From Legionella spiritensis (GTDB taxonomy: Bacteria > Pseudomonadota > Gammaproteobacteria > Legionellales > Legionellaceae), in NCBI RefSeq assembly GCF_900186965.1, contig NZ_LT906457.1:3126501-3190500 (forward strand): DNA of 64,000 nucleotides, written 5' to 3'. Below the pieces are notes generated by a model that did not search any database, was not told where the DNA came from, and worked only from the letters and a program-made list of their open reading frames with translations. The position numbers and the translations under genes are program-made. This document shows, in pieces, positions 52,719-58,362 of this stretch. Positions within the stretch are counted from its first letter, which is position 1. Each line of letters opens with the position of its first letter.

Positions 52719-53693
52719 ATGAAATACAAGGGGTTCATTCAAGTCGTTTCGACCGCACTGATGCTGTTTCATAATCAGGGCTTTTCATTGAGCAATCCCG
52801 AATCGTGTGAGGCAAGCAGGGCAAAACCATGTATTGTGCAAGACACCGCCCGGAAGACTGCCCCCGTCACGAACCTTCGTCACAGTCGGATGATTGGGGA
52901 GTACTACCACGGCAACATAGCCGGAGTCCAGGCATTGCTGGCCTCGGCAAGCGAAGCACCAAGTAAAACCGGCTGGGAGGATATTGCGAGATACATACGC
53001 AACCAGGCAAATTACAAACCCAATCACGTTCTGGTCATCGATTTACGCCAGGAAAATCACGGCTATCTTAACGGCAACGCCATTACTCTGTGCGATTTGC
53101 ACAACTGGCTAAACCTTGGCAAGTCGACCGATCAAACCATCGCGGACGAATCCCGATGGCTGCAAAGCCTGGCCGTTGATCCGGCCATAGAAAATGTGTT
53201 GACTTCGCAGCAATTCGACAAACAGGAGTATAATGCCGGAAAAATCATTCCGATTAAAACCCTGCAAAGCGAACAGGATCTGGTACAGTCCATGGGCTTT
53301 GCCTATCTTCGTCTGGCCATTGCCGATCATCGCGCCCCGCAGGATGACGAAGTTGATAAATTCGTGTCTCTGGTCAATCAATTGCCGAAACATCATTGGC
53401 TGCATATCCACTGCCGGGGCGGAAAGGGCCGTTCCACAACATTTCTTGCCATGTATGACATGCTGAAAAATGCCGATAAAGCCTCGTTTAACGATATCCT
53501 TGCTCGCCAGGCGTCCATTCCTCCTTACTATGATTTAACTCAAATTGTCAGAAACGCTCCGGAATACACCGTTTACTACCAGGAACGGTTGACTTTTTTG
53601 ACTTATTTTTATCAATTTGCCCAACAACGGCTGAGTGGTTATTCCGGAAGCTGGACACAATGGAAAGTCGAACACCAATTGCAAAATACGTAA
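52719..53693 (+). CDS. Exported phytase-like cysteine phosphatase (PTPLP family)
   Basis: A 324-residue protein with the cysteine-phosphatase P-loop HCRGGKGRST (Cys232, Arg238; C-x5-R) and an upstream general-acid loop ADHRAPQDDEVDKFV (Asp203). The combination fits the PTP-like inositol polyphosphate phosphatases (bacterial PhyA-type phytases) better than ordinary tyrosine phosphatases. An N-terminal hydrophobic stretch (MKYKGFIQVVSTALMLFHNQ) looks like a signal peptide, so it is probably exported and may be type II-secreted. Substrate could be inositol phosphates, phosphoinositides or phosphoproteins. It is followed by two hairpins and an operon of two more exported proteins. Confidence 0.85.
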   Translation: MKYKGFIQVVSTALMLFHNQGFSLSNPESCEASRAKPCIVQDTARKTAPVTNLRHSRMIGEYYHGNIAGVQALLASASEAPSKTGWEDIARYIRNQANYKPNHVLVIDLRQENHGYLNGNAITLCDLHNWLNLGKSTDQTIADESRWLQSLAVDPAIENVLTSQQFDKQEYNAGKIIPIKTLQSEQDLVQSMGFAYLRLAIADHRAPQDDEVDKFVSLVNQLPKHHWLHIHCRGGKGRSTTFLAMYDMLKNADKASFNDILARQASIPPYYDLTQIVRNAPEYTVYYQERLTFLTYFYQFAQQRLSGYSGSWTQWKVEHQLQNT

Positions 53694-53723
53694 TTGATTC
53701 AGCCCTGTTGGGTTGTTTTCCAG

Positions 53724-53752
53724 TAACCTATCCATTTAGTATGGATAGGTTA
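53724..53752. repeat. Inverted repeat with 12-bp arms
   Basis: TAACCTATCCAT, loop TTAGT, ATGGATAGGTTA. The arms are A/T-rich, so it is as likely an operator-type site as a terminator. It lies 31 bp after the phosphatase gene and 27 bp before the strong terminator at 53779. Confidence 0.7.
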
Positions 53753-53778
53753 TGATATACAAATTGTTCTAAAATTGT

Positions 53779-53818
53779 CTACGTGCCGCGACTTGTTCTC
53801 GGCACGTAGATGTTTTTT
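53779..53818 (+). terminator. Rho-independent terminator or attenuator
   Basis: Perfect 10-bp stem CTACGTGCCG / CGGCACGTAG with an 11-nt loop, then A and TGTTTTTT. It ends 39 bp before the start of the next gene. It may end the phosphatase transcript, or act as an attenuator in the leader of the following operon. Confidence 0.85.
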
Positions 53819-53856
53819 AAGAATTAAAACCATGCCAAACGAAATGGAGTAAAAAC

Positions 53857-55155
53857 ATGACGCTACGATTAGGCACAACAGGACGCTGCTGGATGTTGGC
53901 CATCGGATTATTATTGATATCGATGACCGGTACCGCCGCCACCTATACAACACCCCAGGCGTTTATGGATTTGTATTTCGATTTCACAGGTACGGGAGAG
54001 ACGGATTTTCCCGCCGGCAAAACCACGATTTCACAATACCTGATCCAGTCGGAACAAACTAAAAAGGCCAGCAATCCCTTTAATGGCCCCCTGATACTGA
54101 TCCTGGACTCTTCCATTTATATTTACGATCAGAACAGGCAGCTTTTGTACAAGAAATTATTACGAACCAACCGCTCCACCGGTTTTTTTGAGATGACCGC
54201 CGTCTCCCACGTGGGCCCCGCGTTGGCCTATCTGGCTAAAATCAAGGAAAACGGCGACGATTCCTGGAAAGCTGCCCTGACCAGTCTGTTAGCCGATATC
54301 AAAAAAGTAAAGGCGCTGAATGCCCAAACCTCCAACAACTGGCTGCAACAACTCAACATCAAGGCCTGGCAAGGACATGAGCAACAAATCCAGGCCATGG
54401 TTGACTACGCCATGTCCATGGCCGGCAACTATATCGTCAATATTCAAAACGGCGCAACGTTCGATCTGTCGTCGGTACAAAACCAGTTTTTTAACGGCAA
54501 CAAGGATTATCCCATTCCCTATAATTCTGTCATGGTAGGAACCTTTATGCTGACCGCGCTGCAAAGCATGGCCGAAGTTCACGACGACGTGGTCAAACTC
54601 AAGCTCGACTGGGCGAACGCCATGGTCATCGTGCGAAATGTGGCCGGCAGTAATGTCACAGCAGGATTAACCAGCGGTAGCAACTGGATGGTGCCGTTTG
54701 TACACGCTTTGGCCGGCGGCAATCTGCCTGCCAATCGGGTGTTTATTCCCGCCTATGCGAAAGTATTACCCGATGTCGGTCAAAATCCTTTGCCCGAGTC
54801 CACCTATAAATATTACGTGAATGGCGTGTGGGGCAGTGTGTTTAATCGCACTCAGATTGCAGGGCAGGTTTTTACCGATCTGGAAACCATTTATTTACCG
54901 GGACGACCGGCCATACCCGGGGATTACAATTATTCGAAGGCCGGCGACATCATTGATTTTATGGTTCGCCTGAAACATTCGCTACAGGATTCCCGGGAAA
55001 TGCTATCCAATACGGTAGGTTTCTGGATGTCTGGAGAATTACTCGACAAAAACTGGGATTTAACGAAAATCGAGATCCCGGGACTGACCAGCGGGTTTCC
55101 GGAAGGTGTCAAACAATACCCGTCACAAAATCCGGCCATTGGACAATCATCATGA
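53857..55155 (+). CDS. Exported protein of unknown function, operon partner of the EAR-propeller protein
   Basis: A 432-residue precursor with a clear Sec signal peptide (a hydrophobic core LAIGLLLISMTG ending TAA before TYTTPQ). The mature part is mostly alpha/beta with a DLYFDFTGTGETDFPAGKT segment near residue 43 and an LILILDSSIYIYDQN strand pair near residue 84. The C-terminus (GLTSGFPEGVKQYPSQNPAI) is polar. I do not recognise a family. GGAG lies 7 bp before the ATG. The stop overlaps the next start as ATGA, so both proteins are made together and probably act together outside the cytoplasm. Confidence 0.75.
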   Translation: MTLRLGTTGRCWMLAIGLLLISMTGTAATYTTPQAFMDLYFDFTGTGETDFPAGKTTISQYLIQSEQTKKASNPFNGPLILILDSSIYIYDQNRQLLYKKLLRTNRSTGFFEMTAVSHVGPALAYLAKIKENGDDSWKAALTSLLADIKKVKALNAQTSNNWLQQLNIKAWQGHEQQIQAMVDYAMSMAGNYIVNIQNGATFDLSSVQNQFFNGNKDYPIPYNSVMVGTFMLTALQSMAEVHDDVVKLKLDWANAMVIVRNVAGSNVTAGLTSGSNWMVPFVHALAGGNLPANRVFIPAYAKVLPDVGQNPLPESTYKYYVNGVWGSVFNRTQIAGQVFTDLETIYLPGRPAIPGDYNYSKAGDIIDFMVRLKHSLQDSREMLSNTVGFWMSGELLDKNWDLTKIEIPGLTSGFPEGVKQYPSQNPAIGQSS

Positions 55156-56348
55156 CCATAAAACATAAGCTGACCGGTTTTTTCCTTATGATCGGCCTGT
55201 TGTCTCCGCTTTTTGCCGGCCAAATCCTGTCGGTAGCAGAGACGCTGACAACCTCTGGCGCACGCGAGGTAACGCCTTTCAAACTGAATCATGAGCAATT
55301 TCTGGCGGTAGCGCAACTGGCCGAGGACATTCCCGACACCCCGGCGAACATGAATGGCGGCAATTCCGATATTGCCGTGGTAATTTTCAAAAAACAATCC
55401 GGCGGCTATAAGGAATATCAGCGTATTCCCAGCCATGGCAATGAAAGCGTCGAATTTTTTACCATAGACAACAACGCGTTTCTTGCGGTGGCCAGTATTC
55501 GTTCCGGACCACACGCGCCCTATAATATGAATACCTATTCCAAATTATACCGCTGGGATGGGCATTATTTTTACCCGGTGCAACAGTTTTTTACCTTCGC
55601 CGCCAAACAATGGCATTATTTCACTATTGGCAATCGCCGTTTTCTGGCCGTAGCCAACGGGGTTACCGCCGGTGAGGCAAATACCCGGGACGCCAATACC
55701 AACTCCATGGTTTACGAGTGGGATGGTCGGCAATTTAAACCATTTCAGTCCATCCCCTCGCAATGGGCTTACAGCTTTGAAACATTTAACATGGACGGAC
55801 AGCACTATCTGGCTCTGGCTGATCATCTCAAGCAATCAAGCCTGTACCGCTGGAATGGACAACAATTCATATCCGTGCAGCTTTTCAAAGGAAACGGCGG
55901 GCGAGCTTTTAAATTTTTTACTATTGCAGACAAGCACTACCTGGCTTATGCCAACATCAGCAACGATTCCGTTGTCTATAAGTGGAACGGCAGACAATTT
56001 GTTTCCTACCAGACTCTAAAAGGAGCCGGAGGCCGTAATTTCGCTTTTTTCACCCGGAATGGTCATTATTATCTGTTACGGATTAATTTTATTCTGGGTG
56101 ATCGCACCAATCCTGAAACCTCCTTGTCCTCACCGCTCTATGAATGGAAAAAGGATCGTTTTATGGTCGTTGAAACCATCCCGACGTTCGGCGGCGTCAG
56201 TGCGGCGTTATTTGCAAACGCCGGCCAGACATTTATCGCCGTGGCCAACAGTTTAAGCGCCGATCGCCGTTTTCGGGTGGATTCCGTGATTTATCGTATC
56301 AATACGACAGCAAAATCCGGGAGCCATTCAAACCCTGGAAAACCCTGA
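55152..56348 (+). CDS. Exported seven-bladed EAR (EPTP)-repeat beta-propeller protein
   Basis: A 398-residue precursor with a signal peptide (MTIKHKLTGFFLMIGLLSPL, then FAG). The mature part has seven repeats of about 45-50 residues, each with an F-x-x-F-x-I-x2-x-x-[FY]-L-A-V-A-[NS] core and usually a following [IV]-Y-x-W-x-G-x-x-F strand. Cores lie near residues 43-54, 100-115, 155-170, 209-224, 253-268, 297-312 and 351-366. This fits the EAR/EPTP propeller of vertebrate LGI1, GPR98 and TSPEAR, which is rare in bacteria. It is presumably a ligand- or surface-binding module. Start overlaps the upstream gene by 4 bp; the 3' end overlaps the convergent gene by 21 bp. Confidence 0.85.
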   Translation: MTIKHKLTGFFLMIGLLSPLFAGQILSVAETLTTSGAREVTPFKLNHEQFLAVAQLAEDIPDTPANMNGGNSDIAVVIFKKQSGGYKEYQRIPSHGNESVEFFTIDNNAFLAVASIRSGPHAPYNMNTYSKLYRWDGHYFYPVQQFFTFAAKQWHYFTIGNRRFLAVANGVTAGEANTRDANTNSMVYEWDGRQFKPFQSIPSQWAYSFETFNMDGQHYLALADHLKQSSLYRWNGQQFISVQLFKGNGGRAFKFFTIADKHYLAYANISNDSVVYKWNGRQFVSYQTLKGAGGRNFAFFTRNGHYYLLRINFILGDRTNPETSLSSPLYEWKKDRFMVVETIPTFGGVSAALFANAGQTFIAVANSLSADRRFRVDSVIYRINTTAKSGSHSNPGKP

Positions 56349-57323
56349 ATAACGGATGGTATCCACTGCCGCATTGTCAGCAACAGGAGTCACAAAAGCG
56401 TCGATGAATGCCTGCCAGAAATCATCATAAAGATAACGCTGCAGTGGGTGCTCATCCTCTACGGGGAAGCATGGCCCGTGATTAGCTTCCAGCAACCACA
56501 GCCGTCCCGTATCATCGGCCATGAAATCAAACCCGAAAATGGCCATACGACGTCGTTCACCGCATTGGAATGCTTGCGGAAATTCACGATTCAATCCCGC
56601 CAGCACCCTCGACACCATAGGCTCTATTTGGTGCATCTGCGCTGCAAAAAAAGCAAATCGTCGTGAGGGGATCTGCAAAACATTCACATCGCTTTCATGC
56701 AGATGCTCGTTGGTCAGATGGGGGCGCAAATCCGTAAAACCATTGCGGGAGTAAGGCGATAAAGCGACATTAAAATAACCGTCCTGATAAAGGTAGGAAC
56801 CGGCGTAGTTCGTTAGAATGACAAACAGGCGAATGCTGTATTTGCGATCATCACGTAACAACTGGGGATTGGTAATATATCGCTGCAACACATGAATCCC
56901 GCCCAAACGCCGGGGATTCAGATAATGACGCTCAATCTCCCCGATCGATTGAAAAATTTTAATCTGCTGACCATTGTTTAATAGAGACGGCTTTAAAATC
57001 CATGTTTCCGGTGCGGACGTACTTTGCCCTTGACGGTCAGCCAGGCGATTCAACACGCCAGGCCAGTTATGATCATCAATACTATGGGTTTCGGGCATCA
57101 CCTCCGGACAATAACGGGTTACCAGAGCCGCGAGCCGATGTTTGTATTCCAGACATTGCGCCGCAGCCTCATCAAAATGCAGATTGGTTTCGCCAAATCC
57201 GGCCCGCTTTGCAAAGCGCGTGGCAATCCAGCCTTGTGCGCGCAACAACCGACTCAAATTATAATGGGTAGGGGACTGTTCAGGAGCCAAACAGTACCGT
57301 CTTGTTCCTGGTTTCATTGACAT
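56328..57323 (-). CDS. Tubulin-tyrosine ligase (TTL) family ATP-grasp protein
   Basis: A 331-residue protein with the TTL-type ATP-grasp pattern: WILKPSLLNNGQQIKIF (ATP-binding Lys111), GGIHVLQRYITNPQLL (141-156), KYSIRLFVILTN (161-172), FGFDFMADDTGRLWLLEANHGPCF (263-286) with metal-binding Asp, Glu and Asn. TTL enzymes add amino acids (Tyr, Glu, Gly) to protein tails such as tubulin in eukaryotes; bacterial members are uncharacterised and the substrate here is unknown. No signal peptide is present. Start ATG at 57323 has only weak ribosome-binding sequence. The gene is convergent with the propeller gene and overlaps it by 21 bp, and is divergent from the J-domain gene. Confidence 0.85.
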   Translation of the reverse strand: MSMKPGTRRYCLAPEQSPTHYNLSRLLRAQGWIATRFAKRAGFGETNLHFDEAAAQCLEYKHRLAALVTRYCPEVMPETHSIDDHNWPGVLNRLADRQGQSTSAPETWILKPSLLNNGQQIKIFQSIGEIERHYLNPRRLGGIHVLQRYITNPQLLRDDRKYSIRLFVILTNYAGSYLYQDGYFNVALSPYSRNGFTDLRPHLTNEHLHESDVNVLQIPSRRFAFFAAQMHQIEPMVSRVLAGLNREFPQAFQCGERRRMAIFGFDFMADDTGRLWLLEANHGPCFPVEDEHPLQRYLYDDFWQAFIDAFVTPVADNAAVDTIRYSGFSRV

Positions 57324-57429: not shown

Positions 57430-58362
57430 ATGTCCAGCACACCTGAAGATGCAAAACCGGAAACCCAGAAGCAACCATCGTCCAACATTCAAAGGATAAA
57501 CGGCGCCGGCAATTTCTATGAGGTATTGGGAGTTGCTCAGGATGCCAGCCCGTCCGAGATAAAAAAAGCTTATTTCAAAGCGGCAAAAGAGGTACATCCC
57601 GATAAAAATCCCGAAAACGTGAAGAAAGAAAGCGAAGCGGCTTTTGACAAGCTTCATAACGCCTACGAAACATTAAGCGACGAGGGAAAACGGGCCACCT
57701 ACGATAATACCCTGAAACAAACCTCCTCACAAACGCAGACTCAAACCAATACGGAAAGCAGTATCGTGGTAGCCAAAAGCCCGACCTCCGCACCGGAAAA
57801 AAGCAAGCCCAAGACTGAAAAAAAGCCGGAAGAAGATGCGAAACCGGAAGAAATAACCGATAAAAAAGAGGAAACCGCCGCTGAAAAACCGGCCGGACCC
57901 CAAAAAAATAAAGCACAACAAGTCAATGACAAGCTTTACGATTTCATGAAAGAGATTTATTCCACCGATGGCATTGACGATCCAGTGATAAAAGCATGGC
58001 TAAAATTCATGCAAACGATGATGGAATTAAATCAGGCGCTCACCAATGCCTTGCTCGGCAAACTCTTTTCCGACAAGAAAGCGGACAAGGGGAACAAGGA
58101 AGAAAATATTGTGGAAGATGAGCTTGCCCAGGAAGACACGCCTCTGTCAGAAATGACGTCGACTGACAATAATCAGCTTGCCATTGAAGACAACAAGGAA
58201 AGCAGCCCGCTGATGCTAACGGCGGCGTCAGACACGTTGGCCATAACAGACGGTTCCGAGCTCAACGACAAGGACATCCCAAGCCTTGATTCTTCCGGCG
58301 GCACCAATGAAATGACCTCATCCCAGGAGCTTGACCAGCCAGATACCATTGCGCCGAAATAA
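57430..58362 (+). CDS. J-domain (DnaJ-like) protein, possible effector
   Basis: A 310-residue protein with a complete J domain (about 28-92) including the HPD tripeptide (56-58), which stimulates Hsp70 ATPase. There is no Gly/Phe region, zinc domain or client-binding domain. A long charged, Lys/Glu/Pro-rich linker (95-165), a short helical section (about 168-220) and an acidic, Ser/Thr-rich C-terminus follow. GGAA lies 8 bp before the ATG. The design suggests recruitment of an Hsp70 (bacterial or host) by an otherwise disordered protein. It could be a Dot/Icm substrate, but there is no direct evidence. The 106-bp upstream spacer is A/T-rich with several possible -10 elements. Confidence 0.75.
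   Translation: MSSTPEDAKPETQKQPSSNIQRINGAGNFYEVLGVAQDASPSEIKKAYFKAAKEVHPDKNPENVKKESEAAFDKLHNAYETLSDEGKRATYDNTLKQTSSQTQTQTNTESSIVVAKSPTSAPEKSKPKTEKKPEEDAKPEEITDKKEETAAEKPAGPQKNKAQQVNDKLYDFMKEIYSTDGIDDPVIKAWLKFMQTMMELNQALTNALLGKLFSDKKADKGNKEENIVEDELAQEDTPLSEMTSTDNNQLAIEDNKESSPLMLTAASDTLAITDGSELNDKDIPSLDSSGGTNEMTSSQELDQPDTIAPK

What the first reader, a model, noticed from the sequence alone, without database searches (positions are those of the whole stretch)
55152..56348. Bacterial exported EAR-repeat propeller with exactly seven repeats
Seven F-x-I...[FY]-L-A-V-A-N cores spaced by about 45-55 residues are visible, the number of blades in vertebrate LGI/EPTP propellers. It carries a signal peptide and sits in an operon with an unknown exported protein. 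EAR repeats in vertebrates bind cell-surface proteins, so a secreted bacterial version could act on host or amoeba surfaces.
Basis: partly seen in the sequence, partly recalled or inferred. Interest (0 to 1): 0.72.

Follow-up and report, generated by a model that had tools for sequence, protein, structure and literature searches.

The report
Bacterial epilepsy-type propeller with partner
This Legionella gene encodes a true seven-bladed relative of the propeller in the human epilepsy protein LGI1, but in bacteria it usually sits beside one partner gene of unknown function and often among nutrient-breakdown genes, so it looks more like half of a small-molecule-processing pair than a host-cell binder.

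Summary
In detail: gene 55152-56348 encodes seven EPTP repeats, each over Pfam's cut-off, and the AlphaFold2 model is a seven-bladed propeller whose best PDB matches are LGI1. Outside Legionellaceae 27 of 27 loci hold both genes (one weak EPTP match dropped). In Legionellaceae 18 of 22 EPTP genomes have DUF5624 adjacent; co-occurrence p = 4e-14. The two proteins share export state: of 44 pairs 16 both exported, 27 neither, one unclear. In 17 of 26 non-Legionellaceae loci the pair lies with an HpaI aldolase, an amidohydrolase and a LysR regulator; no exported Legionella EPTP locus does. A six-residue rim (R-E-K-Y-R-R) is identical in 41 of 48 propellers. I read it as a two-protein module, most likely a small-molecule catabolic unit, exported in most Legionella copies. 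Host-surface binding is not excluded but has no positive support here. Complex, substrate and reaction are inferred, not shown.

The parts
55152..56348 (+). EPTP/EAR seven-bladed propeller gene, 398 aa
   Evidence: Pfam PF03736 E 5.1e-61, 7 stretches; AF2 pLDDT 91.0, pTM 0.87; the first 7 rows of the Foldseek PDB list are all LGI1
55152..55217 (+). putative Sec signal peptide (residues 1-22; end point judged by eye)
   Evidence: 10-residue hydropathy maximum 2.19 ahead of the core; helix 7-20 in the model
55239..55325 (+). EPTP repeat 1 (profile 6-34)
   Evidence: 24.3 bits
55413..55559 (+). EPTP repeat 2
   Evidence: 37.6 bits
55569..55724 (+). EPTP repeat 3
   Evidence: 32.4 bits
55731..55856 (+). 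EPTP repeat 4
   Evidence: 54.9 bits
55863..55988 (+). EPTP repeat 5
   Evidence: 42.5 bits
55995..56078 (+). EPTP repeat 6 (profile 1-28)
   Evidence: 24.3 bits
56157..56300 (+). EPTP repeat 7
   Evidence: 27.2 bits
53857..55155 (+). partner gene, DUF5624 protein, 432 aa, with its own putative signal peptide; its stop overlaps the EPTP start (ATGA)
   Evidence: PF18538 E 4.4e-54; PDB 4jx2 E 6.7e-155; hydropathy maximum 2.67
54178..54561 (+). DUF5624 domain, holding H118 (44 of 44 aligned) and E112 (43 of 44)
   Evidence: (G000:C1:3180678-3181061)
53776..53812 (+). strong hairpin followed by a U run, between the upstream phosphatase gene and the pair; terminator-like
   Evidence: fold of 53740-53856: -30.4 kcal/mol, z -4.01, 0 of 200 shuffles as stable; the pattern scan, which allows loops of 3-8 only, did not list it

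Best explanation
The gene is one half of a conserved two-protein module. SEEN in the sequences: the EPTP propeller and a DUF5624 protein are kept together in Pseudomonadota and Actinomycetota in differing arrangements and share their export state. In the Paraburkholderia/Burkholderia group, an Acidovorax, a Sphingopyxis bin and a Sinorhizobium they lie with an HpaI-type aldolase, an amidohydrolase and a LysR regulator, often with an MFS transporter and a porin. INFERRED: the pair moves between lineages as a unit; the two proteins form one functional unit, probably a complex, that binds and converts a small cyclic or aromatic-derived acid early in a pathway. The product would go to the amidohydrolase (lactone opening) and the aldolase (release of a keto acid). 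The R-E-K-Y-R-R rim at the mouth of the propeller's central channel would be the ligand site, and DUF5624 would supply the other half, with R103, E112, H118, W162, W252 and R371 as candidate active-site residues. In most Legionella copies, this one included, both members carry signal peptides, so the unit would work in the periplasm or outside the cell.
For: Linkage: outside Legionellaceae 27 of 27 loci have both genes (14 found through EPTP; 13 through DUF5624; seen). In Legionellaceae 18 of 22 EPTP genomes have DUF5624 adjacent (17 intact, 1 broken). Co-occurrence in 143 genomes: 19 both, 3 EPTP only, 9 DUF5624 only, 112 neither, Fisher p 4e-14. Arrangements differ: DUF first, EPTP first, divergent, or with an MFS gene between. 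Export state matched in 43 of 44 pairs, one unclear; the label needs three changes on each tree. Lentzea with Sphingopyxis, and Streptomyces with a Hyphomicrobiales bin, are sisters in both trees. HpaI, amidohydrolase and LysR in 17 of 26 loci (types). Rim identical in 41 of 48.
Against: No complex, ligand or activity is shown. None of the exported Legionella EPTP loci has any of the catabolic neighbours tested, and 9 of 26 non-Legionellaceae loci lack the aldolase-amidohydrolase set, five of them on stretches of 12 kb or more. Nine Legionellaceae genomes keep DUF5624 without EPTP and 3 EPTP without DUF5624, so the two are separable there. The rim is kept in 27 of 28 non-exported but only 14 of 20 exported propellers. 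The DUF5624 model matches no solved structure but 4jx2 (next best E 0.83), so no enzyme class can be named. Neighbour names are best profile matches below NCBIfam's cut-offs. The two trees differ in places (for example Acidovorax), the distance correlation (r 0.71-0.83) had no control, several loci are metagenome bins, and the 13 DUF5624-found loci are close kin.
Confidence: 0.5

Rival explanations
1. Surface-binding protein: the exported propeller binds proteins on amoeba or animal cells, as LGI1 binds ADAM22.
For: LGI1-type propeller by profile and fold. Exported form in a Legionella clade. Coupling with DUF5624 is looser in that family, and all six Legionella propellers with a changed rim are exported ones. 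A paper on sponge-associated Thaumarchaeota lists an EPTP domain under host-symbiont interaction (PMC7848895, passages seen).
Against: Relatives in free-living soil bacteria carry no export signal and often sit among catabolic genes. The window's own rim is the common R-E-K-Y-R-R, which argues for the common ligand. The partner has no adhesin-like Pfam or fold match.
Confidence: 0.12
2. The two proteins are separate enzymes for neighbouring steps of one pathway and never touch each other.
For: Shared catabolic context. In 13 of 13 loci found through DUF5624 a transporter gene lies between them. Each occurs alone in some Legionellaceae.
Against: Short overlaps or gaps under 50 bases in many loci, matched export and like grouping in both trees suggest a tight link, though they do not prove contact.
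Confidence: 0.25
3. The propeller is a dedicated scaffold or maturation factor for DUF5624 (or the reverse), with no chemistry of its own.
For: Pairing and matched localisation. Propellers are often scaffolds (general knowledge).
Against: Nine Legionellaceae genomes have DUF5624 and no EPTP match, so DUF5624 can persist without it. A conserved charged rim looks more like a ligand site.
Confidence: 0.13

Closest known systems
LGI1 EPTP propeller (PDB 5y2z, 8hpy, 5y31, 9kzc)
   Same: Seven EPTP repeats, seven-bladed propeller. A profile of 22 bacterial proteins finds four distinct PDB sequences at E up to 0.01, all LGI1 (best 1.5e-25); Foldseek TM up to 0.85 by target length. Of the three rim positions covered by the best stretch, Y207 and R295 are kept.
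   Different: No leucine-rich repeats matched. About 16% identity in the structure alignment. R251 of the rim is M in LGI1. Neighbour is DUF5624; many bacterial members are not exported.
DUF5624 protein lpg1979, PDB 4jx2 (L. pneumophila; title seen)
   Same: The upstream partner is its homologue over residues 25-428 (E 6.7e-155).
   Different: I found no report of an activity or a partner: DUF5624 and lpg1979 gave no paper, 4JX2 gave three unrelated ones by listing.
Catabolic gene sets with PDC/sulfomuconolactone-type amidohydrolase, HpaI aldolase and aromatic-acid MFS transporter
   Same: Genes of these types lie with the pair in 17 of 26 non-Legionellaceae loci (aldolase and amidohydrolase) and 16 of 26 (MFS) (types from representatives).
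   Different: Scores lie below the curated cut-offs for any named enzyme, so the pathway is unnamed; I recall no described pathway that includes EPTP or DUF5624.
PcaD-like alpha/beta hydrolases
   Same: A related hydrolase gene lies beside the pair in three Legionellaceae loci (L066, L067, L081), L084 of another family, two Coxiellaceae-named bins and two Streptomyces copies.
   Different: Best NCBIfam match is PcaD at 77.6 bits against a cut-off of 255.85 (one member tested); substrate unknown.

Membership tests
EPTP/EAR repeat family (PF03736) | Repeats over Pfam gathering score | tested here: met
   7 of 7 single repeats at 24.3-54.9 bits against 21
EPTP/EAR repeat family (PF03736) | Seven repeats folding as a seven-bladed propeller | tested here: met
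   28 strands, read as 7 groups of 4, pLDDT 91; best solved matches are LGI1. Seven repeats in LGI proteins: PMC3691968, passage seen
LGI protein family | LRR domain ahead of the propeller | tested here: not met
   Only EPTP reaches its cut-off in the 398-aa protein
LGI protein family | Binding of an ADAM22-type receptor | not testable with these tools
   No binding assay or complex prediction available
DUF5624 (PF18538), partner protein | Match over gathering score | tested here: met
   182.4 bits against 25; 9 of 9 distant partners given to Pfam also over it; the other partners were found by that family search or by the A2 profile
Secreted host-directed protein | Signal for export | tested here: inconclusive
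   Signal-like N-terminus by hydropathy; no SignalP, no secretion data
Secreted host-directed protein | Acts on a host surface | not testable with these tools
   Needs experiment; such a test in Legionella is referred
Catabolic enzyme unit | Conserved place among catabolic genes | tested here: inconclusive
   Met in 17 of 26 non-Legionellaceae loci, not met in the window nor in any exported Legionella EPTP locus
Catabolic enzyme unit | Measured activity | not testable with these tools
   No substrate known

The most novel reading that the evidence does not exclude
EPTP propeller plus DUF5624 is an undescribed two-subunit enzyme: the propeller's R-E-K-Y-R-R channel mouth holds the substrate, DUF5624 (for which Foldseek found no relative in the PDB beyond 4jx2) completes the active site, and the product enters a lactonase-aldolase pathway. 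The vertebrate LGI/EPTP propellers of synapses would then be a late re-use of a bacterial enzyme subunit whose ligand site became a protein-binding site.
Probability: 0.2. Interest if true: 0.85.

Novelty: new variant of a known kind. Interest (0 to 1): 0.62.

Why it matters
EPTP propellers are described mainly from vertebrate brain and ear proteins, and the one prokaryotic mention that I found (PMC7848895, passages) lists the domain under host-symbiont interaction. A bacterial branch tied to one unknown protein family, and often to catabolic genes, gives both families a genomic setting that I found in no paper. It offers non-pathogens in which to look for the substrate and makes the origin of the LGI propeller a testable question. 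It also warns against reading eukaryote-like domains in Legionella as host-directed by default.

Tried and rejected
Fusion of the two genes: G816 showed DUF5624 in a 978-aa frame, but the excess is an over-long upstream start. Weak hit in G236 (one match, E 8.9e-4, 42-aa frame): none of the five window proteins found a relative in its locus L085, so I dropped it as chance; the tally of 5 of 369 includes it, and it is not in the 27. Phage carriage: no match in 50,697 phage records. Fold relatives of DUF5624: none beyond 4jx2. Upstream phosphatase, downstream TTL and DnaJ-domain genes as parts of the module: no relatives in the 24 fetched loci L062-L085, apart from one DnaJ-domain match in L084 not adjacent to the pair; a hairpin separates the phosphatase gene. 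Alternative partner in the nine DUF5624-only genomes: I saw no gene common to all nine in the listings (read by eye). Rim positions were chosen after seeing the conservation, so their agreement is a description, not a test. The hydropathy threshold (about 1.65) was set by inspection; scores of 1.54-1.63 in DUF5624 of L076, L119 and L143 were settled by reading the N-terminus (exported, unclear, over-long start), and L114 (1.84 and 1.69) also by its twin-arginine motifs. Left out of the 44 pairs: L082, L083 (broken), L075, L078, L079, L080 (no DUF5624 in the locus).

Full report
1. The observation. The ORF at 55152-56348 (+) encodes 398 aa. Pfam EPTP matches at E 5.1e-61 with seven stretches. 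In a whole-genome search the seven repeats are found one by one, 24.3 to 54.9 bits against a cut-off of 21, and no other gene has a match. AlphaFold2 on 22 homologues gives pLDDT 91.0 and pTM 0.87 with 28 strands, which I read as seven groups of four (I had no coordinates, so ring closure rests on the alignment to LGI1). Foldseek ranks seven LGI1 chains first (E 5.8e-17 to 9.1e-16; TM 0.69-0.71 by query, 0.83-0.85 by target where the chain is the propeller alone); other propellers follow from 3e-8. A profile of the 22 bacterial proteins finds only LGI1 in the PDB at E up to 0.01 (best 1.5e-25).

2. The genome. The window lies in a 3.35-Mb single-contig genome. A same-genus genome (G007) has a contig of the same length (347,120) as a Legionella quinlivanii record, and other family genomes match named Legionella contigs in the same way, so I take the window to be from a Legionella species; which one I did not determine. 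GC content over the pair (0.47-0.50 in windows from 53600 to 56599) is near that of its surroundings (0.43-0.49).

3. The partner. The upstream gene (53857-55155) overlaps the EPTP gene by four bases and encodes a DUF5624 protein (E 4.4e-54), homologous to PDB 4jx2 (E 6.7e-155; title: putative secreted protein lpg1979). Its model (pLDDT 77.3) matches only 4jx2; the next match has E 0.83. A strong hairpin with a U run (53776-53812, z -4.01) lies between the pair and the upstream phosphatase gene. The pattern scan did not list it (its loop limit is 8), and the scan's promoter and terminator counts were no higher than in shuffles.

4. Distribution. EPTP: 22 of 143 Legionellaceae genomes, 5 of 33 genera (the order search returned 143 genomes with the same tally); 5 of 369 genomes drawn from the class, of which three were Legionellaceae already counted, one weak match was dropped and one (G328) was new; 2 of 278 in the family of the Sphingopyxis bin, itself included. 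DUF5624: 28 of 143 Legionellaceae, 13 of 349 in the family of P. acidicola, itself included, and 1 of 394 in the class of Lentzea, which is Lentzea itself. Among the 143 genomes 19 have both, 3 EPTP only, 9 DUF5624 only, 112 neither: Fisher p 4e-14, not corrected for kinship.

5. Linkage. In the 22 EPTP genomes of the family, 17 have an intact adjacent DUF5624 gene, one has a broken one (G138), one has it on another contig (G097) and three have no match (G104, G120, G123). Outside the family I examined 14 loci found through EPTP (G328; nine of the 26 loci; three places in two plasmid records; G1534) and 13 found through DUF5624. All 27 hold both genes. Nine distant partners given to Pfam are all DUF5624 over the cut-off. 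The arrangement differs: DUF5624 first, EPTP first, divergent (5 Legionella loci), or, in all 13 loci, separated by 1.3-1.5 kb that hold an MFS gene.

6. Shared address. Of 44 loci with both genes intact, 16 have a signal-like N-terminus on both proteins (14 Legionellaceae, L113, and L114 with twin-arginine motifs on both), 27 on neither, and L119 is unclear. No pair is clearly mixed. On each gene's tree the export label needs at least three changes (two forced by well-supported branches; L119 left out). Thus few independent switches lie behind the count, but both proteins switched each time. Lentzea groups with Sphingopyxis, and Streptomyces with a Hyphomicrobiales bin, in both trees, which suggests joint transfer. 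The trees are not identical (for example the places of Acidovorax and L113 differ), and no formal test was run. Pairwise tree distances correlate at r 0.71 (all 44) and 0.83 without three long-branched rows, with no control for shared descent.

7. Catabolic setting. In all 13 loci found through DUF5624, and in L116 (P. acidicola's other copy), L122 (Sphingopyxis bin), L126 (Acidovorax) and L128 (Sinorhizobium), the fetched stretch holds relatives of the L134 HpcH/HpaI aldolase, Amidohydro_2 protein and LysR regulator: 17 of 26 non-Legionellaceae loci tested (G328, the 27th, was run with the Legionella loci and has only the hydrolase described below). A related MFS transporter is in 16 of 26 and a related porin in 11 of 26. 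L116 adds a LigB-type dioxygenase and a class II aldolase. Only representatives were run against Pfam and NCBIfam; the best names there (4-sulfomuconolactone hydrolase; HpaI/GarL aldolase; aromatic acid/H+ symporter) are all below their cut-offs, so I name types, not enzymes. Of the nine loci without the set, four are short (L114, L119, L120, L162) and five are not (L113, L121, L125, L127, L147). Eight loci, G328 and three Legionellaceae among them, have a PcaD-like alpha/beta hydrolase beside the pair instead; in all eight neither protein has an export signal. None of the exported Legionella EPTP loci has any of the seven neighbour types tested; one DUF5624-only locus (L153) has an MFS match at 35%.

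8. The rim. At or next to the start of the strand that I take as the innermost of blades 1-6 (by analogy with WD40, an inference) stand R38, E98, K152, Y207, R251 and R295. This R-E-K-Y-R-R set is identical in 41 of 48 propellers, including the window's: 27 of 28 without and 14 of 20 with an export signal. The seven that differ are three of the four with no DUF5624 gene in the locus (L078, L079, L080), three of the five with the divergent arrangement (L068, L070, L072), and L119. Since L068, L070, L072 and L078 are one clade and L079 and L080 another, this is suggestive only. In DUF5624, R103, H118, W162, W252 and R371 are the same in 44 of 44 and E112 in 43.

9. Reading. Conserved pairing, shared address, like grouping in trees and a frequent catabolic setting point to a unit that handles a small molecule. 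The pair's own step, its complex and its ligand are inferred. In the exported Legionella copies the catabolic neighbours are absent, the two members are sometimes found alone and the rim is changed in some, so the role may have shifted there; host binding stays possible at about 0.12.

10. Literature. EPTP with Legionella gave one paper, unrelated by its listing; DUF5624 none; lpg1979 none; EPTP with Burkholderia none; 4JX2 three, unrelated by listing; EPTP with prokaryot seven, of which I read passages of two: PMC3691968 (LGI review; LGI genes appear in chordates; seven EPTP repeats) and PMC7848895 (EPTP domain in a sponge-symbiont thaumarchaeal bin, under host-symbiont interaction). Searches were read as listings only. 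In these searches of open-licence papers I found no description of bacterial EPTP-DUF5624 pairs; most subscription papers and all bioRxiv preprints are not held.

Noticed in passing
window 52719-53693 (+): Exported-looking PTP-like phytase (PF14566, E 7.3e-26) related to the Xanthomonas effector family XopH (E 6.5e-54, below cut-off), with an HCRGGKGR motif; not found beside the pair in the 24 relatives' loci searched.
   Followed up: partly
window 56328-57323 (-): Tubulin-tyrosine-ligase-like protein (PF03133, E 9e-24), convergent with the EPTP gene and overlapping its end by 21 bases.
   Followed up: no
window 57430-58362 (+): Protein with an N-terminal J domain (PF00226, E 4.7e-23) and a long acidic, low-complexity remainder (by eye).
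   Followed up: no
L066, L067, L081, L084, L121, L125, L127, L147: PcaD-like alpha/beta hydrolase beside the pair; by eye the nucleophile motif reads GFAS and the expected catalytic His is Gln in L066 and L121, so the usual triad may be altered.
   Followed up: partly
L114:913-3464: Both members of the pair carry twin-arginine signal motifs in a Hyphomicrobiales bin, the only such case noticed among the 44 pairs.
   Followed up: partly
L082, L083 (G138) and L124: A Legionella tunisiensis genome holds a broken DUF5624 gene and two EPTP stretches, one in three frames; low-quality assembly, left as found.
   Followed up: no
L127 and L147 (NZ_CP108478.1): One Streptomyces mirabilis plasmid carries two very similar copies of the EPTP-DUF5624-hydrolase set about 220 kb apart.
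   Followed up: partly
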